The notes below the pieces were generated by a model. That model saw nothing but the letters and a program-made list of their open reading frames with translations. It was not told where the DNA came from and ran no database searches. Position numbers and translations under genes: made by a program. A DNA stretch of 40,202 nucleotides, from assembly GCA_017395555.1 (NCBI GenBank), contig JAFPUE010000080.1:1-40202 (forward strand), given 5' to 3'. This document shows, in pieces, positions 11,663 through 39,971 of this stretch (the first letter of the stretch is position 1; each line of letters opens with the position of its first letter). The stretch is from Ruminiclostridium sp. Lineage in GTDB: Bacteria > Bacillota > Clostridia > Oscillospirales > Ruminococcaceae.

Positions 11663-14600
11663 TTATACATTTTTAAACTTCTCAAAGAAATCTTTAAGTT
11701 TTTCGATAACAATTTCTTTCTTCTCCTTGCGATTACCGCCGCCGAAACGTGACACCGCAGGGAGAATTTTGTCTATATCCGTACCTGTGGTCTTTATGCC
11801 GCCGTCACGGAATGCACCTTCGATAAACGATCTGGTTTCTTCATCTTTGAGCTTTTCTTCCGCTATGATCGCAGCAAGAGCCTTTTCGCGTTCCTCGGCA
11901 ACGAAGATATGCCATTCATTCATAACGTCGTCAACGTCGTTTATGCCTGCGATAAAGGTCTCTATGAGCTGCTTCTTGCTGCGCAGCTCCGGGCTTGATT
12001 CTATAGCCTTCCGGATAGTGATAAGCACTTCCTTGTCACTGCAATGGCTGTCATGGAATTTAGCCACAAGCATAAGTATATAATCGATGTTGATCTCGAT
12101 CTGCTTGATAAGCTCGATCTCGAATACAATATCATCATCAATGTCTGTAAGATTGCCCTTTTTGCGGCGTTCGTTCCACTCATCACGCAAATCCTGATAC
12201 CGTCCGAGGTAATCCTGAAAATCGTGCTCTGAAATGATCTCCTTGCCTGCAAACTCATCGAAGCTCACAAGCAGATTACGCATACGCAGGATTGCACCGA
12301 GAAGCACGATAAACTCCTTCTGGCGTTCCTCGCCGATGATCTGGGGTTCATCAAGCGGGAATTCCGTCAGCAGCCGGTCTATCATATCCACATAGCCGTC
12401 AACGTGCCTGCCCTTTTTATCCTCGTAGCCGTTGTAGTAGTCGTCAAAGCTCTGCAAGGTGACGATACCGCCCGCTTCCTTATCACCGAACAGGGCAATA
12501 GCCGCATCTGTTCTCTTTTTCAGGTTCCGGAAGCATACTATGTTACCGAATGTCTTGATAGAGTTAAGAATACGGTTCGTTCTGGAATATGCCTGTATCA
12601 GGCCGTGCATTTTGAGGTTCTTATCGACCCAAAGGGTATTTAGTGTAGTTGCATCAAAGCCTGTAAGGAACATATTCACGACTATAAGCATATCCAGTTC
12701 CTTATTCTTCATGCGGAGCGACACATCTTTGTAGTAGTTCTGGAACTTGTCGCTTGACGTATCGTAGTTGGTGTTGAACTGCTTATTGTAGTCGGATATG
12801 GCTTTTTCCAGGAAATCTCGTGACGTGGAATCGAGCGCAGAGGTATCTTCGGGGTTTTCCTCATCGAGAATTCCGTCCGGGTCTTCCTCGTTTGCCCCAT
12901 AGCTGTATATTATGGCTATCTTCAGCGCCTTTTCGGGGTTCTCAGCCATTTGCTTCATGAATTCTTCGTAGTACAGTTTCGCAGCCTGTACCGAAGATAC
13001 CGCAAATATTGAGTTGAAACCGCTGATACGCTGTTTCTGCTTGATCTCCTTTACCTGTTCGCGGCGCTTGGACTCCGCGACCTCGGAAACATTCGTCAGA
13101 ACATTATAACTGTATGTACGTTCGTTCCTGTATGTCTTTTGGTTGAAGTGGTCTAAAATATACGATGTAACGAGAGACAGGCGCTTCGGGGACATATACG
13201 CCTTCTCGCGGTCAATATCCCATACCTTGACATCTTCAATGTCCTCTTCCTTATCCATTGTCTTGATGTAGTCCACACGGAACGGAAGAACGTTCTTATC
13301 GTTTATAGCGTCAACAATGGTATAGGAATGGAGCTGATCGCCGAAAGCCTGTTCCGTAGTACGCAGATTCGGGTTCTTGCCCGTTCCGGCATTGAGCGCA
13401 AATATCGGCGTACCGGTGAAGCCGAAAAGATGATATTTCCTGAACTTCTTGGTTATCGCGGCGTGCATATCACCGAACTGGCTCCTGTGACATTCATCGA
13501 AGATGATGACAACGCGCTTATCGTATACGTCATGCGTAGGATTCTTGCTAATGAATGTCGAGAGTTTCTGAATAGTAGTTATGATAATGCGGCAGTTCGG
13601 GTCTTCGAGCTGCTTTTTCAGTATAGCGGTAGAGGTATTGCTGTTCGCCGCGCCCTTCTCAAAGCGGTCATACTCGCGCATGGTCTGATAGTCGAGGTCT
13701 TTACGGTCAACGACAAACAGCACCTTGTCAATATAATCAAGCCCGGAAGCGAGCCTTGCGGACTTGAACGAAGTCAGGGTCTTGCCCGAACCCGTGGTGT
13801 GCCAGATATAACCGCCGCCCGCGACAGTACCGAACTTCTTGTAGTTGTTGGCAATCTCGATACGGTTAAGAATGCGCTCCGTAGCCACGATCTGATACGG
13901 GCGCATTACAAGCAGCAGGCTTTCCGACGTGAATATGCAGTATTTCGTTATGATATTGAGGATAGTATGCTTTGCAAAGAAAGTTTTCGTGAAGTCCACA
14001 AGATCGGGAATGATCTTATTGTTTGCGTCAGCCCAGAACGACGTAAACTCAAAGGAATTACTCGTTTTGGTCTTCTTGCTGCTTTTTCCCGCTTCCTTTA
14101 CGGCGTTGAAACGAGTCGTGTTAGAATAATACTTCGTGTTCGTGCCGTTGGATATAACAAATATCTGCACATACTCAAAAAGACCCGAACCCGCCCAGAA
14201 GCTGTCCCTCTGATAGCGGTCTATCTGATTGAACGCTTCACGGATAGGCACACCGCGCCGTTTTAGCTCTATATGCACAAGCGGGAAGCCGTTCACAAGC
14301 ACGGTCACATCATAGCGGTTCTGACGCTTGCCGGTATCGACCTCGTACTGATTTATGACTTGCAGGCTGTTGTTATGTATATTCTTCTTGTCGATAAGCG
14401 TGATATTCTTTGTTGAGCCGTCGTCGCGTTTCAGGTTCTTGACGTTGTCTTCCTGTATCGTCTTGGTCTTCTCGACAATGCCCTCGTTGGAATTTGCTAT
14501 AAACTCCGTAAAGAAGCGCTTCCACTCGCTTTCTGTGAAAGTATAGCCGTTAAGCTGCTCGATCTTCGCGCGGAGATTGGCAATAAGATCATCTTCCTTG

Positions 14601-14761
14601 TGGATAGTCAGATATTCATATCCAAGCTCACCGAGGCGGCGTATGAACTCCTTTTCAAGCTGCGCTTCGCTCTGGTATGCGTCGGCAGTGCGGGGTTCGG
14701 GGATATACTCGGTAACAACGGTGTTTTCGCTGGTGGCGGCTATGATGTTGAAATAACTCAT
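11663..14761 (-). CDS. hsdR: Type I restriction enzyme, HsdR subunit
   Basis: 1032 residues, normal for HsdR of the EcoR124 (IC-like) group. The N-terminal nuclease shows the PD-(D/E)xK pattern: YDVTVLVNG followed by HIELKRRG (Lys near residue 165). The motor has Walker A TTGSGKT (about 320), the DEAD-box variant FDECHRSQFG (about 420) and motif III FTGTPI. The C-terminal helical part ends SRFGGGNRKEKKEIVIEKLKDFF. HsdR translocates DNA and cuts unmodified DNA when joined to HsdM and HsdS. The ATG overlaps the hsdS stop (14758-14761), so it is last in hsdM-hsdS-hsdR. No frameshift is visible and the system looks intact. Confidence 0.95.
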   Translation of the reverse strand: MSYFNIIAATSENTVVTEYIPEPRTADAYQSEAQLEKEFIRRLGELGYEYLTIHKEDDLIANLRAKIEQLNGYTFTESEWKRFFTEFIANSNEGIVEKTKTIQEDNVKNLKRDDGSTKNITLIDKKNIHNNSLQVINQYEVDTGKRQNRYDVTVLVNGFPLVHIELKRRGVPIREAFNQIDRYQRDSFWAGSGLFEYVQIFVISNGTNTKYYSNTTRFNAVKEAGKSSKKTKTSNSFEFTSFWADANNKIIPDLVDFTKTFFAKHTILNIITKYCIFTSESLLLVMRPYQIVATERILNRIEIANNYKKFGTVAGGGYIWHTTGSGKTLTSFKSARLASGLDYIDKVLFVVDRKDLDYQTMREYDRFEKGAANSNTSTAILKKQLEDPNCRIIITTIQKLSTFISKNPTHDVYDKRVVIIFDECHRSQFGDMHAAITKKFRKYHLFGFTGTPIFALNAGTGKNPNLRTTEQAFGDQLHSYTIVDAINDKNVLPFRVDYIKTMDKEEDIEDVKVWDIDREKAYMSPKRLSLVTSYILDHFNQKTYRNERTYSYNVLTNVSEVAESKRREQVKEIKQKQRISGFNSIFAVSSVQAAKLYYEEFMKQMAENPEKALKIAIIYSYGANEEDPDGILDEENPEDTSALDSTSRDFLEKAISDYNKQFNTNYDTSSDKFQNYYKDVSLRMKNKELDMLIVVNMFLTGFDATTLNTLWVDKNLKMHGLIQAYSRTNRILNSIKTFGNIVCFRNLKKRTDAAIALFGDKEAGGIVTLQSFDDYYNGYEDKKGRHVDGYVDMIDRLLTEFPLDEPQIIGEERQKEFIVLLGAILRMRNLLVSFDEFAGKEIISEHDFQDYLGRYQDLRDEWNERRKKGNLTDIDDDIVFEIELIKQIEINIDYILMLVAKFHDSHCSDKEVLITIRKAIESSPELRSKKQLIETFIAGINDVDDVMNEWHIFVAEEREKALAAIIAEEKLKDEETRSFIEGAFRDGGIKTTGTDIDKILPAVSRFGGGNRKEKKEIVIEKLKDFFEKFKNV

Positions 14762-15984
14762 GCTTTCACTTCCTCAAAGGATAATAATTTATCTCTATAA
14801 TACTCATACTGCTTTTTTCTTGCTTCGATCTCCGCAGGCAAGCCCTCGGAAATGTCATTGCAGAGCTTGTCAAAGCGGTCAAGGATTGATACGATGCGTT
14901 CTTGTTCTTCGATTGGCGGAATAGGCACTCTGATTTTTGAAAGCTTATCTCCAGTTGTTGTTGCTCTTGTTGTAAATGCAGCATACTTAACGATTTGCTT
15001 CCTAACTTCTTGAGTAGAAAAATAATATGCACAGAATTTTGGTATCAAAAGTTCAGTGGTAGGTCTTGCTCTCAAAACAAACCCGCTAAAAACGCAGTTA
15101 GGAACATCTTCAACTAAAGTGCTTGACATACCAATATCTTCTTTTGTTTCTGACGTTCTTGTAAAGAAAACATCGCCTTTTTTGGCACTATATCGTTCAA
15201 TCTCATCAGAAGTAACGTCAACAAGACCTGAAAACGAATCTTTAGCCAGCCACCTGTTTTTATAAACATCGGTAAAATTTATAATTGGCGTTCCTTTTCC
15301 AAATGCTTCTTTTTCCTTATTAAGACCGTTCTTAACAACGAATAAATCACCAAACATTCGCCATTCACAATCATTGTTCTTGAAATATAACAAATGTTCA
15401 CGATAATATTCATACTGTTTCTTGCGGGCTGTAAGCTCTGCTGTAAGTTCGGCTGTAAGCTCTGTGAAATTGTCAAGTACCTTGACAATTTCAGCCTGTA
15501 CCTCTAAAGGCGGTACAGGGATTAAATACCGCATAATGGCTTCTTTGCTACCGCGCGGCATTTTTGCGCCTTTAGCATTTTGCATATCGTATAAGAAGAA
15601 TTTATCAGAAGATAGAATATAATAAAGAAACTTAGGTGTAATATTTGATGTTGTAATGTGTATTACAAGAACATCTCCATTTGTTCCCCCTTCACAATCA
15701 GATAGCCAAATTTTCTTTAAGTATGGGCGTATATTGCCTATTAAAACATCACCTTCTGTGAATTTAATAAGCCGACCTTCTTCGGGAACATACACAGAAG
15801 TAGTACGTCCTTGTTTATCAGGTAATAAATTATCTACGCCTATATATGAAGCATCATCTACTTCATATGCGTTTATTCGTTCCTTAGAATATTCTGCTAT
15901 CTCGCTGAGATTTTTAGATTCGACCCCATTCGGGCAAAGCTCTGCGATCAATTCATCAATTCTGCTCATTGTATTTTCCTTCAT
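14758..15984 (-). CDS. hsdS: Type I restriction enzyme, HsdS specificity subunit
   Basis: 408 residues with the standard plan: target-recognition domain 1 (about 1-160), central conserved region, target-recognition domain 2 (about 205-360), and a C-terminal conserved region. The two conserved regions are alike: ARKKQYEYYREHLLYF in the middle and ARKKQYEYYRDKLLSF near the end. The central region contains a tandem ELTA x3 repeat encoded by a 12-bp unit, the same spacer type that sets half-site distance in EcoR124I. A perfect 12-bp inverted repeat lies directly beside it. The gene starts 10 bases after hsdM and overlaps hsdR by 4. The DNA target cannot be read from sequence. Confidence 0.93.
   Translation of the reverse strand: MKENTMSRIDELIAELCPNGVESKNLSEIAEYSKERINAYEVDDASYIGVDNLLPDKQGRTTSVYVPEEGRLIKFTEGDVLIGNIRPYLKKIWLSDCEGGTNGDVLVIHITTSNITPKFLYYILSSDKFFLYDMQNAKGAKMPRGSKEAIMRYLIPVPPLEVQAEIVKVLDNFTELTAELTAELTARKKQYEYYREHLLYFKNNDCEWRMFGDLFVVKNGLNKEKEAFGKGTPIINFTDVYKNRWLAKDSFSGLVDVTSDEIERYSAKKGDVFFTRTSETKEDIGMSSTLVEDVPNCVFSGFVLRARPTTELLIPKFCAYYFSTQEVRKQIVKYAAFTTRATTTGDKLSKIRVPIPPIEEQERIVSILDRFDKLCNDISEGLPAEIEARKKQYEYYRDKLLSFEEVKA
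15427..15462. repeat. 12-bp x3 tandem repeat (ELTA/TAEL) in hsdS
   Basis: On the plus strand GGCTGTAAGCTC, TGCTGTAAGTTC and GGCTGTAAGCTC run back to back. The coding strand gives Glu-Leu-Thr-Ala three times. Gain or loss of a unit keeps frame and would change the distance between the two recognition domains, as known for EcoR124I versus EcoR124/3I (two versus three TAEL). Confidence 0.9.
15466..15492. repeat. Perfect 12-bp inverted repeat inside hsdS
   Basis: GAAATTGTCAAG (15466-15477), three bases, and its exact complement CTTGACAATTTC (15481-15492), in the codons for EIVKVLDNF next to the tandem repeat. It could be an inversion or pairing site, or it may be chance within coding constraint. 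Confidence 0.8.
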
Positions 15985-15994
15985 TTAATTCAGC

Positions 15995-17554
15995 TTATGC
16001 TATTTCCGCAATGATCTTATCGATCTCCGCTCTCAGCTCATTCTCGCGCTGTACGATCTCCGCGATCTGAGCATTGAGAACATCAATATCTATGACCTCG
16101 CGGGTGTCTTCCTGCTCAACATACGTCGAAACGGACAGGTTATACTCGTTATCTTCGATCTCCTTATTCGGCACAAGGCGGCAGAAATGCTCCTTGTCGG
16201 TGCGCTCGTTGAATGTGGCAACGATCTTTGATATGTTGTCCTCGGTGAGCTTGTTGCTGTTCGTGACCTTGATGCACTCCTTCGACGCATCTATGAAAAG
16301 CGTGCTGTTCAGGGTCTTGTTCTTTTTCAGCACCATGATACAGGTTGCGATAGATGTACCGTAGAAAAGGTTGTCGGGGAGCTGTATGATACAATCGACA
16401 TAGTTGTTGTCTATCAGATATTTGCGTATTTTCTGCTCTGCGCCGCCGCGATACATAACGCCGGGGAAGCATACGATAGCAGCCGCGCCGTTGTTTGCAA
16501 GCCACGAAAGAGAATGCATGATGAATGCAAGGTCGGCTTTCGATTTAGGCGCAAGCACTCCCGCGGGCGAGAAACGCGGGTCATTTATCAGCAGCGGATT
16601 AGCGTCGCCCTCCCACTTTATCGAGTACGGGGGATTCGATACGATAACCTCAAACGGTTCGTCATCCCAGTGCTGCGGCTCGGTCAGCGTGTCCTCGTGC
16701 GCAATATCGAACTTGTCATAGTCGATGTCATGCAGGAACATATTGATGCGGCAGAGGTTGTATGTCGTGATGTTTATTTCTTGCCCGAAGAAGCCCTGAC
16801 GCACCTTATCCTTGCCGAGAATCTTTGCAGCCTTCAGCAGCAGAGAGCCGGAACCGCAGACAGGGTCATAGACCTTGTTTACTTCTGTCTTACCGGATGT
16901 CGCAAGCCGCGTAAGAAGTTCGGAGACCTCCTGCGGGGTATAATACTCGCCGCCGGACTTACCCGCGTTTGACGCATACATACCCATAAGATACTCGTAT
17001 GCGTCACCGAAAGCGTCAATGGTGTTATCCTTATAATCGCCGAGCTGCATAGAAGCAACACCGTTCATCAGCTTTACAAGACGCTCGTTACGCTTTGCCA
17101 CAGTACCGCCAAGCTTGTTGCTGTTTACATCGAAATCGTCGAACAGTCCCTTGAAGTCGTCTTCACTTTCGCAGCCCTGTGCCGAACCCTCGATGCTTCT
17201 GAAAATCCCTTCAAGGGTCTCGTTCAGGTTTTCGTCCTTATCCGCTCTTTTAAGAACGTTGCAGAAAAGCTGACTCGGGAGAATAAAGAAGCCTTTGGTC
17301 TGCACCATGTCTTCACGGGCAGCCTCGGCTTCTTCGTCTGACAGTAAGGCATAATCAAAGCCGGCAGAACCCGCTTCGATCTCGCCCGCGTTTATGTAAT
17401 TCGTAAGATTCTCGGATATGTAACGATAGAACAGCATGACGAGGACGTAGTTTTTGAAGTCCCACCCGTCAACGCTGCCACGCAGATCGTTTGCGATAGC
17501 CCATATTGTGCGGTGAAGTTCCGCTCGTTCCTGTTCCTTTTTATTGTCGATCAT
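15995..17554 (-). CDS. hsdM: Type I DNA methyltransferase, HsdM subunit
   Basis: 519 residues, the usual HsdM size. It has the N-terminal helical HsdM domain (about 1-140), SAM-binding motif I DPVCGSGSLLL (about 228-238), and catalytic motif IV NPPYS (about 305) diagnostic of N6-adenine methyltransferases. The C-terminal coiled segment (IAEIVQRENELRAEIDKII) is expected to contact HsdS. HsdM methylates the bipartite target and is part of the restriction complex. It is first in the operon; the ribosome site (GAAAGTGAG) is modest. The AAA/DUF4143 gene ends only 56 bases upstream on the same strand, so read-through from that gene is likely; I found no strong separate promoter. Confidence 0.95.
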   Translation of the reverse strand: MIDNKKEQERAELHRTIWAIANDLRGSVDGWDFKNYVLVMLFYRYISENLTNYINAGEIEAGSAGFDYALLSDEEAEAAREDMVQTKGFFILPSQLFCNVLKRADKDENLNETLEGIFRSIEGSAQGCESEDDFKGLFDDFDVNSNKLGGTVAKRNERLVKLMNGVASMQLGDYKDNTIDAFGDAYEYLMGMYASNAGKSGGEYYTPQEVSELLTRLATSGKTEVNKVYDPVCGSGSLLLKAAKILGKDKVRQGFFGQEINITTYNLCRINMFLHDIDYDKFDIAHEDTLTEPQHWDDEPFEVIVSNPPYSIKWEGDANPLLINDPRFSPAGVLAPKSKADLAFIMHSLSWLANNGAAAIVCFPGVMYRGGAEQKIRKYLIDNNYVDCIIQLPDNLFYGTSIATCIMVLKKNKTLNSTLFIDASKECIKVTNSNKLTEDNISKIVATFNERTDKEHFCRLVPNKEIEDNEYNLSVSTYVEQEDTREVIDIDVLNAQIAEIVQRENELRAEIDKIIAEIA

Positions 17555-17610: not shown

Positions 17611-18828
17611 TCAGTATATTTTACCGATCAGCCAATCCAGCGCATTTATCCTTCTTATGCCATTATAATCAGCTTCGGGATCGTCATCGAGAGTAAGAAT
17701 AAACTTTTGATAATGGTCATTTATTTTTCTCAGAGGGGCAAGCTCGCGTTCGAGAGTATTACTGTCCCTGACTGTGGCAGCGACCTGATAGTAAACAGGG
17801 CGCTTTTCATATATCGCGACAAAATCAACTTCAAGCTCGTCGATCTTACCGACATAAACCTCATTTCCACGGCGAAGAAGTTCCAGATATATTATGTTTT
17901 CGAGTATTCTACCAACATCTGTGGACTGAGAGCCGAGTAGCGTATAACGAAGTCCGATATCAGCCGCATAGTATTTTTCGAGAGTTTTAAGGCGCTGCTT
18001 GCCCCTGACATTATAACGCTCAGCCTTATACACAGCGAAGCTTGATATAAGTGCTTCGAGATATTTCTCTACTGTTTTTGCGTCGATCTTTCTGCCGTCA
18101 GAGGTCATAGTATCAGCGATCTTTTTAGTCGATAACTGATTGCCGATATTATCATACACAAATCTTACGACACTTTCGAGCATCATTATATCAGTGAGCT
18201 TTTTCCTTGTTGCAATATCTTTGACAATAATAGTATTGAAAAGGCTATCAAGGTAGTCATGTATCTCTTTGGGCTGATCTTTTAGCTGTAAAATATACGG
18301 GAAAGTGCCTTTTTCCACATAATCTCTGTATTTTTCCGAAAGACTCTGTTTGCTGTCGGTCGCAGACGCGTACTCTTTAAAAGAAAGAGGAAGCATAGAG
18401 ATTTCTACATATCTTCCCGAAAGCATGGTCGCGATCTCACTCGACAGCATTATAGCGTTTGAACCGGTAAGATATATGTCTGTGTTCTTTTTGATAAACA
18501 GGCTGTCAATAACTTCCGGGAACTCCTTGCACTGCTGAACCTCATCTATAAGAATGTATGTCATTTTATTGGTAAGCAACCGCTCTTTGATATATTTATG
18601 CAGCGCATCAGGTTCCCGAAGTCCCTTGTTATCATAATCTTCAAGGTTTAAGAAGATTATCTGGTCATCTTTTACTCCGTTATTTTTAAGATAATCTATA
18701 AACATCTCCATAAGTGTGGATTTGCCGCATCTTCTTATTCCGGTTATTATCTTTATTATCTGCTTATCTTTGAAAGCTATCAGCTTGTTCAGATCTTCTT
18801 CGCGTTTTATAGAGTCCAAAACAGTCAT
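17611..18828 (-). CDS. AAA ATPase with DUF4143 domain (copy 2)
   Basis: A 405-residue paralogue of the protein at 1056-2249. Walker A TGIRRCGKSTLM lies around residues 29-40 and Walker B is YILIDEVQQC. The C-terminal DUF4143 block reads LENIIYLELLRRGNEV, then LEVDFVAI and PVYYQVAAT; it keeps the usual QVA where copy 1 has KVS. The ATG at 18828 directly abuts AAAGGAG, so the better-spaced TTG at 18819 (fourth codon) may be the real start, giving 402 residues. It lies immediately upstream of hsdM on the same strand. Family role is unsettled; association with the restriction operon may be coincidental. Confidence 0.9.
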   Translation of the reverse strand: MTVLDSIKREEDLNKLIAFKDKQIIKIITGIRRCGKSTLMEMFIDYLKNNGVKDDQIIFLNLEDYDNKGLREPDALHKYIKERLLTNKMTYILIDEVQQCKEFPEVIDSLFIKKNTDIYLTGSNAIMLSSEIATMLSGRYVEISMLPLSFKEYASATDSKQSLSEKYRDYVEKGTFPYILQLKDQPKEIHDYLDSLFNTIIVKDIATRKKLTDIMMLESVVRFVYDNIGNQLSTKKIADTMTSDGRKIDAKTVEKYLEALISSFAVYKAERYNVRGKQRLKTLEKYYAADIGLRYTLLGSQSTDVGRILENIIYLELLRRGNEVYVGKIDELEVDFVAIYEKRPVYYQVAATVRDSNTLERELAPLRKINDHYQKFILTLDDDPEADYNGIRRINALDWLIGKIY

Positions 18829-27955: not shown

Positions 27956-28016
27956 GTAATATGGTGTATAATTTTCATAGACTAATATGCAACTTTACCT
28001 CGGAAAGGAAATAATT

Positions 28017-31000
28017 ATGTTTTGCGGAAATTGCGGAAATAAGATCGAAGATAACGTAAAATTCTGTCCGTCCTGCGGTGCGCCGATACAGACGGATGTA
28101 CAGCCCGCGGCTCCCGTACAGGAACATGCTGCGGAGCCTGTTGTGCAGGCAGCCGCTCCTGTAATTGAACAGGCTGCGGAGCCCGCCGCTCCTGTCAGCG
28201 AACCGGCACCCGCTCCCGCCGGGCGTGCTTATCCCACACATAACGTCGCGGAGGACAGCGTACATCTCATGGGAGATGTACCGATGATAGAAGAACCCGC
28301 CGCACCTGCGCCGGAGCCGGCTCCCGTTCAGCCGGAAGCGCCCGTGCAGCAGAACGCGTTCGCGCAGCCGGCAGCTCCGGTTCAGCAGCCCGTTCAGCCG
28401 GAATATCAGCCTGCAGCTCCCGTTACGCCCAAGAAGAAAAAGGGCAAGGCGGGTCTTATCGCGGGAGTAACAGCCGCCGCGGTAGTTGCGGGCGGTGCCG
28501 GAGTAGGATACTTCTGCTTCCACGACGATATCACCCACCTTGTAATGGGCGACAAGGAATACGCGAAAATGGTTGACAAGATGTCGTTCATAGGGCTCAA
28601 AGACCACGAGGACGATATCAACGGCTATACCGACAACCTGTCGTCATATATCGGAATGTTCGCCAATGCGGCGGGTAACACCTCGCAGGACAATACGGAG
28701 AGCTCCTCGGATGATATGGCGCTTCGTATGCTCGGCGGCTGCTTCGGCGTATTCGATAACGGCATCATTCCGGACGGAACACTGCTCGAATCCGAATCCA
28801 CGGTAAACGTGGAGCTCGGAAGCGTATTCGCGCTCGCGGACAACGACACGACAAAGTCCATAATAGAAGCGATAAACAGCTCGAAGATCACCTCGAAGAT
28901 CGCAAACGGCGAGACCGATCTTTTCTCCGCGGCGATAATCGCGGGCGGCAACGAGCTGATAAGCGGCGAGTTATACACGAAGGACGGCGGTATGCTGATA
29001 GCTCTGCCGAGCGTGACCGACAAGACAGTATATATCCCGAAGGAGAAGTTCGACGGGCTCGTACCGACGGAGGAGGAGCTCAAAAAGCGCACTCCCGACA
29101 AGGAAGAGCTCAAGCGCATACGCAAAGAGCTCGCGAAGATATACTATGACAGCTACGACAGCGCGCAGATCAAATACACCGACAACTCCATTATGGCAGT
29201 AGAGCTCGACGGCCCCGATCCCGGTGTTACCGCGAAGGGCAATCTCGTCAGCATAACACTGACGGGCGAGCAGATCGAAGACGTGCTTAATAAGTGCAAG
29301 GACTTCCTTAAGAACGACGAGTATCTGAGAAGCTACTTCAAAGAAGCATATGATATAGACAACGATAAATACGAGGAGCTTTTCAAGCAGCCGGAAAACA
29401 CGGAAAGTGCAAAGAAACCGGAACTCACGCTGGATATAGAACACCTCGTCGATGTTCACAACAACGTACTCGCGACACGCTATAAGCTGCAGTCCGAAGA
29501 CGGCAGCGGAACAGCTATGTTCGTCGGACAAAAGAACAACAAGGGCGCGTATGTCGGCATCACGGCAAAGGACGACCTCAGCGCGGAAATAAGCCTTGTG
29601 GACAAAACGGAAAACAACAAGGACGGCAAGGCTGTTCTGGATATCAATGTATCCACAAAGGACAAGAGCGGCGATTTCCGCTTTGACTGCAGCTACACCG
29701 GCAAGGGTACGGCGAAATTCACAGGCGATGTCGAAGTACCGGTAGGAAATTATGTCGTAACTCTGTCCGATCCGGACAAATTTACCCAGTCCGTAAAGGA
29801 TCTGCTCGGTATGTCCGACATATCGAAGGATCAGATAGTCGGCGAGACCATGTCGGCAGTGGATCAGGGCTCCGGCTTCAACCCCGATTCCCTGATAAAA
29901 GAGCTGAAAAAGTTCACGCTCACACTTGATTCTTCCGTTGCGGACAACGTTCACACCGAGAAAATGAACATAGCGTTCGGCGATATAGGCTCGATAGAAT
30001 TCGGCAGCCGCACCGAGAAGAAGTCCGAAACGGTGACAATGCCCGATACGGCAAAGTCCGTACGCATCGACGACGAGGAAGCCATGAGCGCTCTGAGTGA
30101 GGACGTTGTAAAGTGGGCGGGCGATCTGCTTGACAAGACAGGTATCTCGAACATGATCGGCGGAATGTTCGGCAGCCTTGTGAACCCCGGCGGTATCATA
30201 GGCACCGATACCGACGGCAACCCGCACTATGCCGCGTACACACAGTATATGGAGTATGAGGCGGACAGCGCGAGCAACCGGATATATGATTCCCTCAAAG
30301 AACAGGTTGGGGAAGCCGTTGCGGCGAAAGGCGCAGGTCTTGTCGAGGGCAGAATAAAGCTGTACTACAAAAACGGCAAGCCCGAGGTAATCGACGACGG
30401 CGGCTTCGGCGGACTTAAATTCGATGACATGGAAGGTCTTGATTCCGTTTACGCGGAAGTGCTGATCGACAGCCGCTTCTCGAACGATATCGTCGGAGTA
30501 ACTACGGTATTCACCGACGACAAGTATGATATCCCGAACGATCTGCCCGGCGTGTTCAACTACTGCGACAACCTTTATCCGTGGGAAACAACTAATATGA
30601 TCGACGACTATGTTGTCGGCACATACCCCTATATTTATACGGGCGAGCCCTTTACGACGGAATACCCCGCTGCTCCCTATACAAAGGAAGAGCTTGACGA
30701 CATCGCTTACAGCATAACGGGCAATGCGCTCAAAATGCTCGGACCCGACGGCGATCTTGGCAACTACAAGAATACCGATTCCGACGATCTCGCGATCGAG
30801 CTCAGCTGCGACAAGACAGAATGGACGCTGTCGGCGTGCTACGAGAACGGCTATTGGACAGGAAACGATATCGTATCGGGCGATTTCACGAATACGCTTC
30901 TGAATGACTGCCGTGATATCGACGCAAAGAACGAAATAAAGGCTGTCCTATACTTCAAGGACGGCAAGCTCGTCGGAACGGCGGCATTCTCCGGCAGCAC

Positions 31001-32219
31001 ATACATAGATATCGAATCGAGGCAGTTCCCGAAGGCGGACGACTTCAAGAACGGCACGTTCGCGGGCTGGGACGAGAACGCGGGCAAAGGATACATCAAA
31101 TACTACGACGATCTGATAGCGGAAGGAACCTACTGCCTTACCACACACGGCGCACTCGGCAGCGGCTCCGCGGCGGTGAGCGATCCCGGCGCGTCGGAGA
31201 TCAACGGCACATGGTTCGTTACGACGATAGACGGAAAGCCGTATGAAGAAACAATGCGCGAGCTTCTTTCAGGTCTGGAAGATCCGGACATAGAAACAGG
31301 CACCTCAAACGGATTACCGAGATTCTATTTTGTAATAAACGGCAGCAAGATGACCGTGGGCATTGAAAGTCTCGATATTGACAGCACGGAATATAATATC
31401 GAACCAGGCGAATTTGACGGCAAGCCCGCGTATAAAATACTTGACAGCTGGGGCGACAATTACGGCTGGTTCATACCCGATGAGCAGCAGAAAACCGCAC
31501 AGGTGCTCGACACCCTGAATGACAGTATGATGGAAGTGGTATGGGAAAGCTCTTCCGTTACGATACCGGGGAAGACAGCCTTCGGCACGGTCAAGCAGGA
31601 TGTGTCGATAGAGGACGTAGCCGGAAAATGGCACACCTTCTATGACGACGAAGATTACTATCTGATGATCGGCACAAACTACGTCGCTGTTGATTACGAT
31701 CCCGACGATATGTATTTTAATGACGACGATTATGTTCTGATGAACCCGAACGGTGACGGCTTCGACTGCTTTGAATCCGGCGAAACCACTGCGGTAATAA
31801 GAATAACGTACAGCGCGGATACAGACACACTTTCCGTTATGTCTCTGCAAAACGACAATACTATGATCTTGGAGAGAACAGACACACTGCCCGCGCAGAC
31901 ACCCTATCTCGGCACATGGCAGATCTCCGGTGTTGAAGGTCAGAGCATCGAGGATTATGTGGGACAGAACGACATAGATATTGACGACATAATGTGCAGC
32001 TTCATAATAGGCGAATACGTCGGACTTTACACCGACAAATACGGCTATGACGAGCTTTGGACGGTATTCCCGACAGACGACAGATCCTTCAACCTTGCGT
32101 ATGACTCCTCACTGTTCATTGAAATGAAGCTCTCCGACGACGGCAGCAAGCTCAACGGAATAATGAGAGTTGACGACAGCAACGAGACCGTGCAGTACGA
32201 ATTTGTAAGAGTATCATAA
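28017..32219 (+). CDS. Large zinc-ribbon, single-pass membrane protein
   Basis: 1400 residues; start chosen from GGAAAGGAA at about 28002-28010. It begins with a zinc ribbon (Cys 3, 6, 17, 20), then a Pro/Ala/Glu/Gln-rich linker (about 28-138). A Lys-rich stop (KKKKGK) precedes one transmembrane helix (about 146-166, AGLIAGVTAAAVVAGGAGVG). The remaining ~1230 residues should be outside. They include a long alpha/beta region and near the C-terminus three similar lipocalin-like units opening with NGTWFVTTIDGKPYE (about 1062), AGKWHTFYDD (about 1202) and LGTWQISGVEGQSIED (about 1297). No catalytic motif is evident. Such proteins are common in Ruminococcus-like genomes without known function; a cell-surface binding or sensing role is a guess. 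Confidence 0.85.
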   Translation: MFCGNCGNKIEDNVKFCPSCGAPIQTDVQPAAPVQEHAAEPVVQAAAPVIEQAAEPAAPVSEPAPAPAGRAYPTHNVAEDSVHLMGDVPMIEEPAAPAPEPAPVQPEAPVQQNAFAQPAAPVQQPVQPEYQPAAPVTPKKKKGKAGLIAGVTAAAVVAGGAGVGYFCFHDDITHLVMGDKEYAKMVDKMSFIGLKDHEDDINGYTDNLSSYIGMFANAAGNTSQDNTESSSDDMALRMLGGCFGVFDNGIIPDGTLLESESTVNVELGSVFALADNDTTKSIIEAINSSKITSKIANGETDLFSAAIIAGGNELISGELYTKDGGMLIALPSVTDKTVYIPKEKFDGLVPTEEELKKRTPDKEELKRIRKELAKIYYDSYDSAQIKYTDNSIMAVELDGPDPGVTAKGNLVSITLTGEQIEDVLNKCKDFLKNDEYLRSYFKEAYDIDNDKYEELFKQPENTESAKKPELTLDIEHLVDVHNNVLATRYKLQSEDGSGTAMFVGQKNNKGAYVGITAKDDLSAEISLVDKTENNKDGKAVLDINVSTKDKSGDFRFDCSYTGKGTAKFTGDVEVPVGNYVVTLSDPDKFTQSVKDLLGMSDISKDQIVGETMSAVDQGSGFNPDSLIKELKKFTLTLDSSVADNVHTEKMNIAFGDIGSIEFGSRTEKKSETVTMPDTAKSVRIDDEEAMSALSEDVVKWAGDLLDKTGISNMIGGMFGSLVNPGGIIGTDTDGNPHYAAYTQYMEYEADSASNRIYDSLKEQVGEAVAAKGAGLVEGRIKLYYKNGKPEVIDDGGFGGLKFDDMEGLDSVYAEVLIDSRFSNDIVGVTTVFTDDKYDIPNDLPGVFNYCDNLYPWETTNMIDDYVVGTYPYIYTGEPFTTEYPAAPYTKEELDDIAYSITGNALKMLGPDGDLGNYKNTDSDDLAIELSCDKTEWTLSACYENGYWTGNDIVSGDFTNTLLNDCRDIDAKNEIKAVLYFKDGKLVGTAAFSGSTYIDIESRQFPKADDFKNGTFAGWDENAGKGYIKYYDDLIAEGTYCLTTHGALGSGSAAVSDPGASEINGTWFVTTIDGKPYEETMRELLSGLEDPDIETGTSNGLPRFYFVINGSKMTVGIESLDIDSTEYNIEPGEFDGKPAYKILDSWGDNYGWFIPDEQQKTAQVLDTLNDSMMEVVWESSSVTIPGKTAFGTVKQDVSIEDVAGKWHTFYDDEDYYLMIGTNYVAVDYDPDDMYFNDDDYVLMNPNGDGFDCFESGETTAVIRITYSADTDTLSVMSLQNDNTMILERTDTLPAQTPYLGTWQISGVEGQSIEDYVGQNDIDIDDIMCSFIIGEYVGLYTDKYGYDELWTVFPTDDRSFNLAYDSSLFIEMKLSDDGSKLNGIMRVDDSNETVQYEFVRVS

Positions 32220-33911: not shown

Positions 33912-34448
33912 ATGAAACGTCTTATTTTTGTTGTTCCGGCAGTTCTCATACTGTCGTCCTGCGCCGCGTCCGGCAGTGCCGCAGATCCCGCGAAGCTCGA
34001 TGTGCCGTTCGGCGCGGAAGCCCGCATATCCTACGGCGGTGACGAATGTACCGCGAAGATAAGCCGCTACGGAGCCGGGAGCTGGGAATTTGAGATAACG
34101 GAGCCGTATGCGCTCGAAGGTCTTACAGTGACCGAAACGGACGGCAAAACCACGTTCTCGATGCTCGGCGCGGAAAGCACTGCGGACATAAGCCCGGCGG
34201 CGGTAAGCATGACCCGCGCATTCTCGTCCGCTTATGACGCGGCAGCCGCAGGCGGCGAGGTGACTTATGACAGCGCCGGGGAGCCGGTATTCACCGGAAC
34301 GTCCGACACGGGCAGATACCGCGTGAAGCTCGGCGAGGATATGACTCCCACGCTCATAACGTCGGAGGAATGTAAGCTGAAAGCAGAAATATCGTCCTTC
34401 GGACTGCTGCCGGAGAACGATATTACCGCAGAGATCGACAGGAGCTGA
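33912..34448 (+). CDS. Small secreted lipoprotein of unknown function
   Basis: 178 residues. Lipoprotein signal MKRLIFVVPAVLILSSC with the lipobox Cys17, then about 160 residues of predicted beta-rich sequence (ARISYGGDECTAKISRYGAG, GRYRVKLGEDMTP), loosely like LolA/LppX-type folds but without a diagnostic motif. GAAGGAG precedes the ATG. It lies 65 bases after nnr on the same strand and may share its transcript. It converges on the sigma-like/propeller gene with only seven bases between the two stop codons and no terminator hairpin. Confidence 0.82.
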   Translation: MKRLIFVVPAVLILSSCAASGSAADPAKLDVPFGAEARISYGGDECTAKISRYGAGSWEFEITEPYALEGLTVTETDGKTTFSMLGAESTADISPAAVSMTRAFSSAYDAAAAGGEVTYDSAGEPVFTGTSDTGRYRVKLGEDMTPTLITSEECKLKAEISSFGLLPENDITAEIDRS

Positions 34449-34455
34449 ACCGCGC

Positions 34456-37400
34456 TTACGACTCCGAAAGAGCCAGCGTTATCAGCTTTGTGTCGGTTAT
34501 GATGTAGAGGTCTCCGTCCATGAATACGGGACAGAGAACGGATGATTTTTCGTCGAACATCAGGTGCTCGCCTACCTGTGAGAATACCGAACCGTCGAAC
34601 CGCAGGATAACTATGCGCTCGACTTCCGAGAAGCCGTCGAAATAGACTGTGGGGACAGCGAAAAGCGTTCCCGTTTCGTCCACGGCGATAAAGGAGCTGT
34701 TGGTCTCGGCGGGGCTGCTGAGGTATTTCAGATTGTCGCGCGAGGTGTCCTTGTCGAGCTCGATTATCGAGTACGCGGTCTCTTTGAGCCCGTTGTCGTA
34801 GCTGTACAGCGACAGCCTCAGTCCCGCGCGTTCACCGTTTGGGGTAGGCTCGGCTTTAAGTCCCACGAGCCTGTCACCGGCAGCCGAAAGCCTGTCGGTA
34901 TAGATGTAGTCGGAGGTAACGTCTGCGGGCGCGGGCGCATCGCCGCTCATATCGAAACCGTACAGCAGCTTCGCGGTCTTGCCCTGCTCCGCGACAACGA
35001 ACGCGATGCCGTCGTCTGACCACGCAATATTTTTCGCATTTTCGGAAACTGTGTCATCATCGCCGGACTGTGTGGAGATGTAGGTGCCGTTCTTGTAAGC
35101 GGTGATACCGCCGCCGTCCGGGAGCTGTCCGATAAGTGCGCCGTCACCGAGGCACTGCGCACCGAAAGCTTCGCCCATGTAGCACTTCGCGCCGGAAACC
35201 GACATATTGCCGTCAATATCGACTGCGTAGGTCACACCCTCATCGACTGTCACAAGTGTTGTATTGCCGCCGTCGAACCGGAGCTTTTCCGCGTCACGGT
35301 AGCCGTCGGTATATCCGCCGAGCACTGCCGCGGCTTTTCCGCCGACAGTATAGATGATGTGCAGCGCGTTATGCTTCGCGCCCTCTATCGCGTAAATGTC
35401 GGACGCCGATATCTCGTTCACAACGCCGTTCTTTGAGCAGGACGGCTTTTTTCCGTTGTAATAATCGTCCGCCTTGTCGGGAGCATAAACTGCCGCAATG
35501 ACGAGCTTGCCGTTCACGACACCGGCACCCGCGTAGTCGCCGGTAACGGTGTATTCGTCCTGTTTCGACAGCGCGCTGTCATAGACAGTCACCGTCGTTT
35601 CGTGCAGCGACGAGCCTGCCGCGTCACGCGTTTCCGATATCACATAAAGCTCGCCGAAAATGACGGTATATCCGCGCACCGCAGAGCCGTCAACACGCAC
35701 GGGCTCCGGCTGAACGGCAGCCTCACCGCTGTCCGCTCTCGCGAGAGTTACCTTGCGGAAATAGTCGTTCGCGTAGATGTAAGCCGAGCTTCCGTCGGTT
35801 ATCACACCGGATTCCGAGCCGGGCAGTATGCGGGGAGCGTACGGTTCCGCGGAAGCGCACATATATCCAGCTTCCGCCGTGCTTGCGGAGCTTCGGAAGC
35901 TGCCGCCGTACTTCGCATCGTTGAGATCCGCGAGAGACGCGAGCTTTGTGAGCTGCGTATCCTCGGAGAACACCGCGTCGGACTGCGCCGGGACTGCCTC
36001 TTCTTCAACGGCTCCGGTCTGCGCCGCTTCCTCCGTCACCGCGGGAACGTCCTGCACGGGCACGGTCTCCGCGGGCTTCGCGAGGAACTTCATACCCACG
36101 CTTCCCGCCGTGAGCAGTACCGCGCACACCGCGCAGGCAACGATCTTGCCCGTATTCACGCCCTCGTAGTATTCGTTCTCGTCATAGAAGAACGCATTGC
36201 CCTTGTAGCGCGGTCTTTCGGGTTCTTCGTCTTCGTCATCGTCGTCGTCGTCTTCCCTGCCGCGACTGTTTTCTTCTTTGTAAGTGTCCTTTTCTTCTTC
36301 CCCGCCGTATTCGTCGGCTCCGTAATCGTCGTCTTCCTCATCCGGTTCGGGCCCGATCACGGGTTCTTCTTCCGGTTCGGGTTCTTCAACCGGCTCCGGT
36401 TCAGGTTCCTCCGGTTCCTCTTCCGGTTCCTCTTCCGGTTCGTACTCTATCTCTTCCGCCTGCTCCGGCTCAGTATCTTTCTCCGGTTCGGGTTCGATAT
36501 TCTCTTCCGGCCCGGGCTCCTGTTCTTCCTCGGGTTCGTATTCTGTCTCCGGTCCTTCAACGGCTTCTGACCCGGAAACTTCCTCGTCCTCATAATCGTC
36601 ATCGTCGTAGAACTCCGGCGGCTCGCTTATCTCAATACTGTCGTCGTCGTCATCACCGTAATCATTGTCGTCGTCCATTCCGAAAACGGATATACCCTCG
36701 TCGTCCTCATCCTCGTCCTCCGACGTGTCGCGGTCAAGGATAAGCTCCGAGGTAAATTCGAGGACCTCTTCCTTTTTGCCGTGCTTCTTGTCACTTGCAA
36801 AGACAAGCTCAACATCGGGCTTGTAGCCGTATATCTGCTCGTCGCTTTCCGGATCAATAATGTCATTGACATACGGGTTGGACTCGCCGATCGCGTATTC
36901 GTCTATTATCTGCGTTACGGAGATCCCGCGGGTGTCCGTCTTTTTGGGCTTGGGGCTTTCGTATTCCCACTCTTCCTCCGGTTTCTCCGCAACCTCCGCG
37001 GCAAGAGCCGCCGCGATCTGCTCTGGTGTGAGCTCGGGTTCGGGCTCGGGTTCCGGTTCGGGCTCCGGTTCGGGCTCGGGCTCGGGTTCCGGCTCGGGTT
37101 CCGGCTCGGGTTCCGGTTCGGGCTCCGGCTCGGGCTCGGGTTCCGGTTCGGGCTCCGGCTCGGGTTTGGGCTTTTTCGCCGCAGGCTTTACCGGCACCGT
37201 AAGATCGTCATCGTCGTCGAAATCATCGTTAAGATCGGACTCGTCATCATCGGAGAAGTTCACGCCGGTCAGCTCCACGCGGAACGGCTGTATCTCGTCA
37301 TCGCCGTCGTCCTCCGTCAGAACGCCGAGCGGCTCGTCCCACTTGTCGGTATGCTTTTCGGCGGGCTTCTGCGGCTCGTGCGCAGGCTCGCTCACGCTCG

Positions 37401-39753
37401 CTCCGGCGCTCTCGCCCTCCGCGCCTTCCGGTATCTCGTCCGCGAACGGTATGGGTATTATCTTGTCAAAGGTCTTTGTATTTGATATCGAAGTCAGCGG
37501 CATATCGAATTCTATCGTTCCGCTGACCGGCTTTTCCGCCGCTTCGGCTTCCGCCATTTCCGCAGCAGGCTCCGGAGCCGGTTCTTCCCCGGCTTCGGCG
37601 GGCTCCGCGCCCTCTATGCTCTCTATCGTTTCCGGTTCTTCCGCGCTTTCGATAAATTCACGCACTCCGACGCTTTCCGCAGTCTCCGGCGCTTCCGCGC
37701 TTTCTTCCGGTATCTCCGCGGCTTCCGTCACGGGCAAGGCGGGAATATCGAGCTCCGCTTCCTCCTCGGGAGCTTCCGCGTCGATCATAACCGGCTCCGG
37801 TATCTCCGCCGCTTCTTCGACTGCCGCTTCTTCCGCGGTGTCAGGAGTTTTCTCCGGTATCTCGTCGTGCTGTTCTTCCTCGGGCGCGGCAATTCGCTCG
37901 GGCTTTGCCTGCGGCAGTACAGCTTTCGACGCGATAGCCGCAAAGGGATCTATCGCTCCGGTGCTGTCGTCATCGTAATGTCCCTCGTCCTCCGTGAAGC
38001 TCTCACTTCTCGGCACTACCGAAACTATATCTCCGAGGCTCGGCGGTATGCTTGACGAACGGTTATCCTCCGCGTCACCGAACGCTCTGCGGTTCTTTTT
38101 CGAGCGGTTTTTGTTCTTCTCACGACGCTTTTCCTGCGGCTCGGGCTGCACGGGTACAGGCACGGGAACAGCCGCGGGCTCCGGCTCGATCGGCTCCGGC
38201 TCAATTACGGGAGCGGAAACGGCAGCGAATTCGGGAGCTGTCGTCTCGGGCTTTTCGGGTCCCGCAAACTTCACCGTCTCAAACACGGCGGAAGCCTGCA
38301 CGGGTACGGGCGGCTTCTCATATCCGGGACGGTACTGATCTATCTGTCCGGGCTGCTCCGCTTCACGGAGATCAAGCTGCGCCGTGTTCCTCGGATCGCT
38401 CATTCCTATCGCCATCTGCAGATCGGTCTTGGGCGGGTTGCGGCGGCGTCTTTTTTTTCGGCGCGTGCCGTCATAAAGTCCCGCCTTTTCAAGCGCAAGG
38501 CGATTCTCCTCTTTCGCGTCAAGAACCTCGCGGCGCTCTTTTATCGCCGTGAGCATCTTGTAATAATCGTTCTCGGTGAGCGGCGACTGTTCGAGAAGCT
38601 CGATAAGTCTGCTTTTTGTGAGCTTCGGGTTCTGCTCTATCTCGCGAAAAGCGCTGTTGCTTATCCTCGTGTTTCCGAGCAGACGCAGAAACTCGCTGCC
38701 CTTCATTCTCTCCGCCGTAACAACGGCAATAAATGCAGCCGCGTCGAACTTGTTTCCGCTCAGATAGTCGTCCTGCTCCTCGTCGTTCTCCGCTTCGGCA
38801 TCTTCATATTCTTCCGCGTCGGCATTCTCACCGGTATCGGATTCCTCCTCAAAAACGGGCTCCTCCGCGGCTTCCTCCGGCTCGCTCTCCGTATATTTAT
38901 CCGTTACGGCTGTCTCCTGCTCCGGGATATCTTCCGCTTCCGGTGCGCTCTCCTCCGTTATATCCTCCGGCTGTTCTTCTTCGGGTTCTTCCGCTTCCGG
39001 CTCCGGTACGGGCTCCGGTGCGGGTTCCTCTTCGGGAACGCTTTCTTCCTCCGGCTCCGCCGGTTCTTCCTTCGCGGGCTCCTCTTCATCGTCGGCAAAA
39101 AGCACCGCAGTCGGTATCTCCGGCGAATACGGCTTGTCGGGGGCGCTGTCCGTCTCCTGCACGGCTTCGCTCTCGTTTTCGGTCATATTGAGGATATCCG
39201 CGAGCGAGCGCTGTTCGTTCTGCTTGTCAAAAGCGGACAGACGTTCCCTCAGCTTTTCGGGAGCCTCCCCCGTTCTGATCGCGTTCATTACGCGGTCATA
39301 TCCGGAACCGAGGTGCTGTTTCGCGGAGGCGAGCTTGTCGTTTACAGCATTTTCCGGCATACCGAGCAGCACCGACACCTCTCTTGCGGAATACCCGAAC
39401 ACGCTTGCGATCGCAAACACGAGCCTTTCCACATCGGGCATCTTCTCCGCCGCGGCGAGAGATCCCGGTGCCATATGTACGGTGCCGTTCGCTTTATATT
39501 CCTTGAGCATATCCACGATAAACTTCGTCAGCTCATGCACGAGCCACGAGCACAGGTGGCGCTCGTCCTTTATGCGGGAAATACTCTCAAAACCCTCGTC
39601 TATGGCATCGGAAACAGCCTTTTCCGCGCCGCCGCCGTTTTTGAGTGACAGCAGCGCCGCCGCGTAGAGCTTATCCGCGAAGTTCAAACAGAGCGATTCG
39701 TAGGCGGCTCTGTTTCCGTCCTTTGCCATACCGAGCTTTTCTTCAAAATTCAA
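34456..39753 (-). CDS. ECF-sigma-like / acidic linker / membrane / beta-propeller fusion protein
   Basis: 1765 residues from TTG 39753, which sits eight bases after AAGGAG; the frame is open further upstream without a good start. Residues 5-87 resemble ECF sigma region 2 ([16 protein letters not shown], then [21 protein letters not shown]). Residues 103-150 resemble region 4 ([20 protein letters not shown], then [18 protein letters not shown]). A long acidic Pro/Glu linker follows, with a helical insert (about 329-420), an RKKRRRR patch (about 430) and 22 Glu-Pro dipeptides (about 863-906). One transmembrane helix is at about 1204-1224 ([21 protein letters not shown]). The ~480-residue C-terminus has the repeated strand pattern of the PF09826-type beta-propeller. 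No signal peptide, so N-terminus inside and propeller outside. A membrane-tethered regulator is inferred. Confidence 0.82.
37035..37166. repeat. Hexanucleotide tandem repeat, 22 units, coding (Glu-Pro)22
   Basis: Twenty-two consecutive hexamers of the form C(G/C)GG(T/C)T on the plus strand, with no interruption. The third-position variants (CGGGTT, CGGGCT, CCGGTT, CCGGCT) recur in blocks, indicating expansion by unit duplication. Unit gain or loss keeps the frame and changes linker length. Confidence 0.92.
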
Positions 39754-39875: not shown

Positions 39876-39881
39876 ATTATA
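39876..39881 (-). promoter_or_regulatory. Probable -10 of the sigma-like/propeller gene
   Basis: Minus-strand TATAAT (39876-39881). No good -35 lies at the right distance (only TTTATT-like), so the promoter may need an activator or another sigma factor. The leader to the TTG start is about 115 bases. Confidence 0.5.
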
Positions 39882-39971
39882 GCACATTTCCCCGAAAAAT
39901 AAAAGATGTTTTGACAAATTTCCGAAAATATTATTAATTCTTCACCAAAAGATGAAGTATTAACAATAGTA

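What the first reader, a model, noticed from the sequence alone, without database searches (positions are those of the whole stretch)
34456..39753. ECF-sigma-like domain fused through a giant acidic linker and one membrane helix to an extracellular beta-propeller
Directly seen: region-2-like and region-4-like segments in the first 150 residues, about 1050 residues of acidic, repeat-rich linker, one transmembrane helix near 1204-1224 and about 480 residues of propeller-like sequence. Known: ECF sigma factors are normally small soluble proteins held by separate membrane anti-sigma factors, and propeller domains occur on the outer part of some such membrane proteins. Inference: here the sigma-like part and the outer sensor are one polypeptide, so signal release might need proteolysis, or the domain may have lost polymerase binding and act as an adaptor. 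The weak -35 also fits special regulation.
Basis: partly seen in the sequence, partly recalled or inferred. Interest (0 to 1): 0.85.

Follow-up and report, generated by a model that had tools for sequence, protein, structure and literature searches.

The report
Degenerate sigma domain fused to sensor
In uncultured gut bacteria related to Ruminococcus, a gene-switch protein (sigma factor) and its membrane-bound sensor partner have become one giant protein, but the switch part appears to have lost the features it needs to work on DNA and RNA polymerase, so it looks recycled for another role.

Summary
One 1,765-aa ORF (minus strand, TTG start) encodes an ECF-sigma fold, acidic linkers, one TM helix and a beta-propeller.

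The fusion is real: 17 complete fused ORFs among 71 genomes of the genus, in one clade. It derives from an operon: 19 of 20 high-scoring PF09826 propeller genes from other genera have an ECF sigma gene directly upstream. In the window's genus 65 of 71 genomes carry one mid-propeller locus: separate sigma-like gene 25, fused 19, no sigma-like gene 19, undetermined 2.

The fused sigma-like domain keeps its predicted fold and purifying selection (omega 0.06-0.17, six pairs), but has lost the region-2.2 acidic signature (position 45: 3 of 20, versus 19 of 19 operon controls) and the basic recognition helix (charge -2..+1 versus +3..+6). Its core-binding face is unusually variable. Most of this loss is already seen in the 25 separate genes.

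Best reading: a "pseudo-sigma" module in a membrane receptor, probably no longer a transcription factor. Fused sigma/anti-sigma proteins are known (IutY, ECF52); I found no report of the degeneration followed by loss or fusion.

The parts
34456..39753 (-). Whole fused gene, 1765 aa, TTG start, AAAAGGAG ribosome site at 39769-39762
   Evidence: 17 complete fused ORFs (this one included)
39289..39753 (-). ECF-sigma-fold domain, residues 1-155 (region 2 about 8-88, region 4 about 100-148)
39199..39291 (-). Anti-sigma-type tail, residues 155-185, with invariant P165-x-x-L168 (A164 in all but one or so); matches the start of the separate downstream protein in split relatives
38482..38748 (-). Conserved helical 'mid' domain, residues 336-424; no accepted Pfam match; most constrained part (omega 0.03-0.055)
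37000..37179 (-). Low-complexity Pro-Glu repeat in the acidic linker (within residues 859-918)
36085..36147 (-). Single transmembrane helix, residues about 1203-1223
34459..35868 (-). Beta-propeller related to PF09826, residues about 1296-1765, taken as extracytoplasmic
39876..39884 (-). Extended -10-like TGCTATAAT upstream of the gene (direct reading; consensus scan found no full site)

Best explanation
The gene encodes a one-polypeptide membrane receptor that descends from an ECF sigma / PF09826-propeller operon. Shown by sequence: the order sigma fold, anti-sigma-type tail, mid domain, TM helix, propeller; relatives with the parts as neighbouring genes; one fused clade; loss of core- and promoter-contact signatures with purifying selection on the fused domain; co-occurrence of tail and sigma-like domain. 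Inferred: the sigma fold is now a 'pseudo-sigma' that does not direct RNA polymerase but folds on the tail in cis (closed, SigW-RsiW-like state) as a built-in regulatory or anchoring module; the propeller senses something outside the membrane, and the signal passes through the TM helix to the mid domain, the part kept in all three architectures and the most constrained, which is the likely output.
For: Operon origin: 19 of 20 PF09826 genes fetched from other genera of the family (chosen from the higher-scoring hits) have an ECF sigma gene directly upstream on the same strand; 25 genomes of the window's genus have adjacent same-strand sigma-like and mid-TM-propeller genes. One clade of 18 fused rows, SH-aLRT 99. 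Signature loss: residue 45 acidic 3/20 fused, 12/25 split, 19/19 operon controls; residue 49 acidic 3/20, 1/25, 18/19; residue 143 basic 0/20, 0/25, 19/19; recognition-helix charge -2..+1, -2..+4 (24 of 25 at most +2), +3..+6. In fused proteins positions 45, 48, 49, 52 lie at the 95th, 96th, 74th and 85th percentile of variability, in operon controls at 0, 29, 38 and 51. Yet omega of the sigma domain is 0.06-0.17 in six fused pairs. The 19 sigma-less loci also lack the tail motif (0 of 19), which 19 of 19 fused and, by strict motif, 23 of 25 split loci have. Mid domain: omega 0.03-0.055 in the 5 of 6 pairs where computable, one copy in 65 of 71 genomes. Closed-state fold: SigW from the RsiW complex TMt 0.75, RNAP-bound SigH 0.33.
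Against: No experiment. Region 4 still passes the Pfam cut-off in residues 1-168 of the window protein and a region-4 match at E<=0.1 is seen in 13 of 16 fused proteins. Residue 140 is basic in 20/20 and W70 kept in 20/20, and region 2.3-2.4 is strongly conserved, which could mean altered rather than lost DNA binding. Two other basic positions of the recognition helix do not separate the groups well: 138 is basic in 11/19 and 145 in 8/19 operon controls, and 145 is basic in 13/20 fused. A closed conformation may be what AlphaFold2 gives for any ECF; no coordinates or PAE were available, so tail docking was not seen. Which residues touch RNAP or DNA is recalled from E. coli sigmaE, not from a call. 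Omega is rough because many dS values are near or above 1, and it was measured in fused pairs only. That the mid domain is the output is inference from conservation.
Confidence: 0.55

Rival explanations
1. A working membrane-tethered ECF sigma factor: an outside signal triggers regulated intramembrane proteolysis, which frees the sigma domain to bind RNA polymerase and a divergent promoter, as proposed for IutY and ECF52.
For: Same order of parts as IutY/ECF52 (passages of PMC8999054; PMC5826349). The genome has an M50 site-2-type protease, best E 7e-58 (the family rang in 14 of 14 control genomes). The sigma domain is under purifying selection.
Against: Loss of region-2.2 and recognition-helix signatures in 20 fused and 25 split homologues against 19 operon controls and 17 other ECFs; core face unusually variable; acidic residue at 139 in 16/20 fused and 0/36 controls. 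A sister clade does without the sigma-like gene at the locus.
Confidence: 0.2
2. A PhyR-like decoy: on signal, the sigma-like domain is exposed and titrates the anti-sigma of a true ECF sigma factor, releasing that sigma.
Confidence: 0.15
3. The sigma-like domain is a relic that merely helps the protein fold or positions the tail, with no signalling role of its own.
For: Absent at the locus in 19 genomes; tail poorly conserved outside the AP-x-x-L core.
Against: Omega 0.06-0.17 over the domain and 39 near-invariant positions (entropy at most 0.3 bit) in 20 fused proteins speak for a specific function.
Confidence: 0.1

Closest known systems
IutY (ECF243, Pseudomonas putida), sigma fused to its membrane anti-sigma
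   Same: ECF sigma domain N-terminal, anti-sigma and membrane part C-terminal in one protein (PMC8999054, passages)
   Different: IutY is an active sigma released by proteolysis in an iron-siderophore system; here the outer part is a PF09826-type propeller, a mid domain is added, and sigma contact signatures are lost
ECF52 (SCO4117) and ECF48/ECF53 of Actinobacteria
   Same: ECF sigma, long extension, TM helix and extracytoplasmic part in one polypeptide (PMC5826349 and PMC8999054, passages)
   Different: Zinc-finger anti-sigma domain and (ECF52) carbohydrate-binding module instead of tail, mid domain and propeller; Actinobacteria; SCO4117 was shown to act in regulation
ECF57 with WD40-like repeats
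   Same: ECF sigma fused to propeller-type repeats (PMC8999054, passages)
   Different: There the repeats are proposed to mediate protein-protein interaction; no PF09826-type propeller is mentioned in the passages seen; listed example is from Singulisphaera
PhyR sigma-like domain
   Same: Sigma fold that works without being a sigma factor (structure titles; abstracts in a search listing)
   Different: Response regulator that binds the anti-sigma NepR; two-component input
ECF sigma + PF09826 propeller gene pairs in other genera of the family
   Same: Sigma gene followed by a tail-TM-propeller gene: the presumed ancestral arrangement
   Different: Two genes, canonical sigma signatures, no mid-domain match in the 20 fetched stretches; mid-like domains outside the genus are rare (4 genomes in the order sample; also L066)

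Membership tests
ECF (group IV) sigma factor | sigma2 and sigma4 folds | tested here: met
ECF (group IV) sigma factor | region-2.2 core-binding signature (role of the residues recalled) | tested here: not met
   residue 45 acidic 3/20, residue 49 acidic 3/20 in fused; 19/19 and 18/19 in operon controls; the window itself has K45, S48 and an acidic D49
ECF (group IV) sigma factor | basic -35 recognition helix (role of the residues recalled) | tested here: not met
   charge -2..+1 in 20 fused versus +3..+6 in 19 operon controls and 17 other ECFs
ECF (group IV) sigma factor | directs RNAP to promoters | not testable with these tools
   needs biochemistry
Fused sigma/anti-sigma one-component proteins (IutY, ECF52) | sigma domain, anti-sigma segment, TM helix and outer sensor in one ORF | tested here: met
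   that the tail is an anti-sigma segment is inferred from its place and co-occurrence
Fused sigma/anti-sigma one-component proteins (IutY, ECF52) | activation by proteolytic release of an active sigma | not testable with these tools
   M50 protease present but nothing links it
PF09826 beta-propeller family | significant homology to the family | tested here: met
   not by direct HMM for the window, but hhalign E 8e-25 to a set with canonical members; intermediates L117 E 1.5e-24 and L051 E 4e-11 hit the Pfam model, others such as L052, L133, L134 do not
PF09826 beta-propeller family | propeller fold | tested here: met
PhyR-type sigma mimic | sigma-like domain plus receiver domain | tested here: not met
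   no receiver domain in Pfam or NCBIfam scans

The most novel reading that the evidence does not exclude
A 'pseudo-sigma' receptor family: in one bacterial genus an ECF sigma factor stopped being a transcription factor while still paired with its membrane anti-sigma, and the pair then went two ways, fusion into one giant receptor in one clade and loss of the sigma part in another, with a cytoplasmic mid domain carrying the output. Sigma factors would thus join the kinases and proteases as proteins with conserved non-catalytic (pseudo) descendants built into membrane receptors.
Probability: 0.5. Interest if true: 0.78.

Novelty: new variant of a known kind. Interest (0 to 1): 0.62.

Why it matters
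It gives, inside one genus, the steps from a sigma/anti-sigma gene pair to a one-protein receptor, and a natural set for asking what a sigma fold can do without RNA polymerase. It also points to an uncharacterised, nearly universal receptor of this uncultured gut genus and to a frequent ECF sigma / PF09826 propeller pairing whose signal is unknown. If residues 1-155 do bind RNAP after all, the case would instead show a sigma factor with an unusual core interface.

Tried and rejected
Assembly error or chance ORF: rejected (17 complete fused ORFs; omega well below 1). Direct PF09826 match in the window: not found, replaced by profile-profile comparison. Known family for the mid domain: none accepted (Pfam best E 0.003, DUF4168 in 3 of 14 members; PDB best E 0.008 to part of a cyclodipeptide synthase, taken as chance); the mid domain was not folded or searched alone, so a known fold is not excluded. 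Solved relative of the canonical propellers by sequence: none at E<=0.1. Consensus promoter: none at threshold. A search for the pseudo-sigma idea found one paper, on phage T4 late transcription; propeller/ECF searches returned three papers of which none by title concerns this pairing, one pipeline paper and none; of 59 papers, 20 were listed and three opened for passages. The main ECF classification paper and the sigmaE -35 structure paper are not held, so whether the PF09826 pairing has an ECF group number is unknown. Sigma domain as a phage tail protein (weak Pfam hits): rejected as below cut-off.

Rows dropped or relabelled: of 13 own-genome PF04542 loci, L090, L092, L093, L097 and L098 were left out as not ECF-like from then on and L094 from then on, leaving 7; the typed SigW fragment was not counted; L005 (cut by contig end) is not in the fused 20 and L033 is; L066 and L067 were moved from the canonical and split groups to an outgroup set. 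The 20 operon controls were picked by me from the higher-scoring hits, not at random; one (L171) has no sigma gene in the fetched stretch. In the tree L024, L029, L144, L148 and L149 were dropped as too short, duplicates L136 and L151-L153 skipped, and L135 (C-terminal half on a contig end, its other half L033) labelled fused by me. One split sequence with charge +4 goes against a clean gap between split and control groups. L131 and L066 have long branches, and the tree was run in 'quick' mode only. 'Sigma-less' means none in the fetched stretch; for L118 only about 670 bases upstream were available, and the rest of those genomes was searched only for the 60 genomes with one window sequence.
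Full report

The linker holds a conserved 89-aa helical domain ('mid'). It has no accepted Pfam match and is the most constrained part of the protein: omega 0.03-0.055 in the five of six fused pairs where it could be computed, against 0.06-0.17 for the sigma part and 0.07-0.13 for the outer domain; many dS values are near or above 1, so these are rough. The rest of the linker is 33-42% Asp+Glu, with a Pro-Glu repeat, and differs widely in length among relatives.

RELATIVES. In the genus, 65 of 71 genomes carry exactly one mid-domain match (39 of 41 of good quality); in a sample of the order 18 of 394 do, 14 of them in this genus. I fetched the loci and classed all 65: 19 have sigma and mid in one ORF, 25 have a separate sigma-like gene next to it on the same strand, 19 have no sigma-like gene in the fetched stretch, 2 cannot be told because of contig ends (G004, whose two halves lie on two contigs and look fused, and G254, which has the tail). 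One more genome (G053) has the sigma part on a contig end without a mid match. Seventeen ORFs with sigma and mid exceed 1,000 aa and are complete. A named-genome search gave 19 fused-type loci in assemblies titled Ruminococcus, Ruminococcaceae, Ruminiclostridium or Clostridia, several from rumen or gut samples; 15 are full length with a TM helix and 4 are cut by contig ends. Most are the same contigs as in the unnamed set. A tree of mid plus C-terminal parts (63 rows) puts the 18 fused rows in one clade and the 17 sigma-less rows in one clade (SH-aLRT 99 each), the fused clade being next to a split clade (support 86).

ORIGIN. PF09826 genes are common in the family (73 of 197 genomes; the longest open frame among the matches is 947 aa, so none looks like the giant fusion). 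Of 20 from other genera that I fetched from the higher-scoring hits, 19 have an ECF sigma gene directly upstream on the same strand, usually adjoining or overlapping, and none shows a mid domain. In split relatives of the genus the downstream protein begins with a short tail with an h-P-x-x-L/I/V motif (23 of 25 strictly; the other two have I-P); in the fused proteins the same motif (A164-P165-x-x-L168 in the window) follows region 4 (19 of 19); in sigma-less proteins it is absent (0 of 19). So the tail goes with the sigma-like domain, as expected of its binding segment, and the fusion joined two neighbouring genes. A family member outside the genus, L066, has a canonical sigma, the tail, a mid-like domain and PF09826, so lack of the sigma gene in the sigma-less clade is most simply a loss.

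IS IT STILL A SIGMA FACTOR? The controls are 19 operon sigmas, 7 own-genome ECF-like genes, 6 other ECFs of the genus and 4 canonical split sigmas (36 in all). Residue 45 is acidic in 36 of 36 controls, in 12 of 25 split and 3 of 20 fused; residue 143 is basic in 34 of 36, 0 of 25 and 0 of 20; the recognition-helix charge is +3 to +6 in 36 of 36, -2 to +2 in 24 of 25 split (one is +4), and -2 to +1 in 20 of 20 fused. Not every position separates the groups: residue 138 is basic in 27 of 36 controls (11 of 19 operon ones), 1 of 25 and 0 of 20; residue 145 in 23 of 36, 6 of 25 and 13 of 20; residue 140 in 32 of 36, 10 of 25 and 20 of 20. Three outgroup pairs with a mid-like domain are intermediate (residue 45 acidic in 2 of 3; charges +2, +5, +6). 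Within the fused clade the core-binding face is among the more variable parts of the domain, while residues 63-77 are nearly fixed. That these positions touch core RNAP and the -35 element is recalled from E. coli sigmaE work; the paper was not held. Against loss, region-4 profile matches persist in 13 of 16 fused proteins at E<=0.1, in 9 of 18 split ones, and W70 is kept in 20 of 20 fused.

MECHANISM. Shown by sequence: architecture, neighbouring-gene origin, one fused clade, signature loss with purifying selection on the fused domain, co-occurrence of tail and sigma-like domain, near-universal single-copy mid-TM-propeller protein. Inferred: propeller outside, signal through the TM helix, mid domain as output, sigma fold clamped in cis by the tail. 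The membrane orientation (sigma side inside) is inferred from homology to anti-sigma-type proteins. A site-2-type protease exists in the genome, so proteolytic release cannot be excluded, but a released domain would be a poor sigma factor by sequence.

NOVELTY. Sigma/anti-sigma fusions are in print: IutY, ECF48, ECF52, ECF53, ECF36, and ECF57 with WD40-like repeats (passages of PMC8999054; PMC5826349; PMC8103513 passages, say that extensions may come from fusion with anti-sigma-like genes). Regulated proteolysis of RsiV is from passages of PMC6066255. PhyR is a known non-transcriptional sigma fold (search listing; structures). I found nothing on PF09826 propellers as anti-sigma partners or on degenerate fused sigma domains; the library is incomplete. 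Hence 'new variant of a known kind', with a bolder reading (a pseudo-sigma receptor family) at about even odds.

Noticed in passing
L039:1664-3469 (minus), L038:3275-4975, L040:1208-3790 (minus): Other genomes of the genus carry different ECF fusions: a canonical-looking ECF sigma followed by hydrophobic segments and leucine-rich-repeat-like sequence (602-aa frame), one followed by a TM-like segment, a Thr-rich stretch and another domain (567 aa), and one with a long C-terminal extension (861 aa).; repeats judged by eye.
   Followed up: partly
L119, L120, L124, L126, L127, L128, L129, L132: In several sigma-less genomes the mid-TM-propeller gene is divergent from a MurL-like epimerase gene (only L129's was scanned: NF041275 E 4e-73, below its cut-off; the others by eye), mostly next to a MurD-like ligase (L129: TIGR01087 E 9e-39), the alternative D-glutamate route known from Xanthomonas (recalled)..
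   Followed up: partly
L034:7145-9338, L035:145-702: Next to two fused genes lies a second, ordinary ECF sigma gene (in L034 followed by a 579-aa frame)..
   Followed up: no
window 11666-17554 (minus): Type I restriction-modification set (HsdR, HsdS, HsdM by Pfam), with an AAA_14/DUF4143 ATPase gene next to it (17614-18828)..
   Followed up: no
window 27987-32219 (+): 1410-aa zinc-ribbon protein with a Pro/Ala-rich stretch and a hydrophobic segment; otherwise unassigned by Pfam..
   Followed up: no
window 33912-34448 (+): Small lipoprotein-like gene convergent with the fused gene (7 bases between the two) and kept next to it in the two nearest relatives L021 and L022..
   Followed up: no
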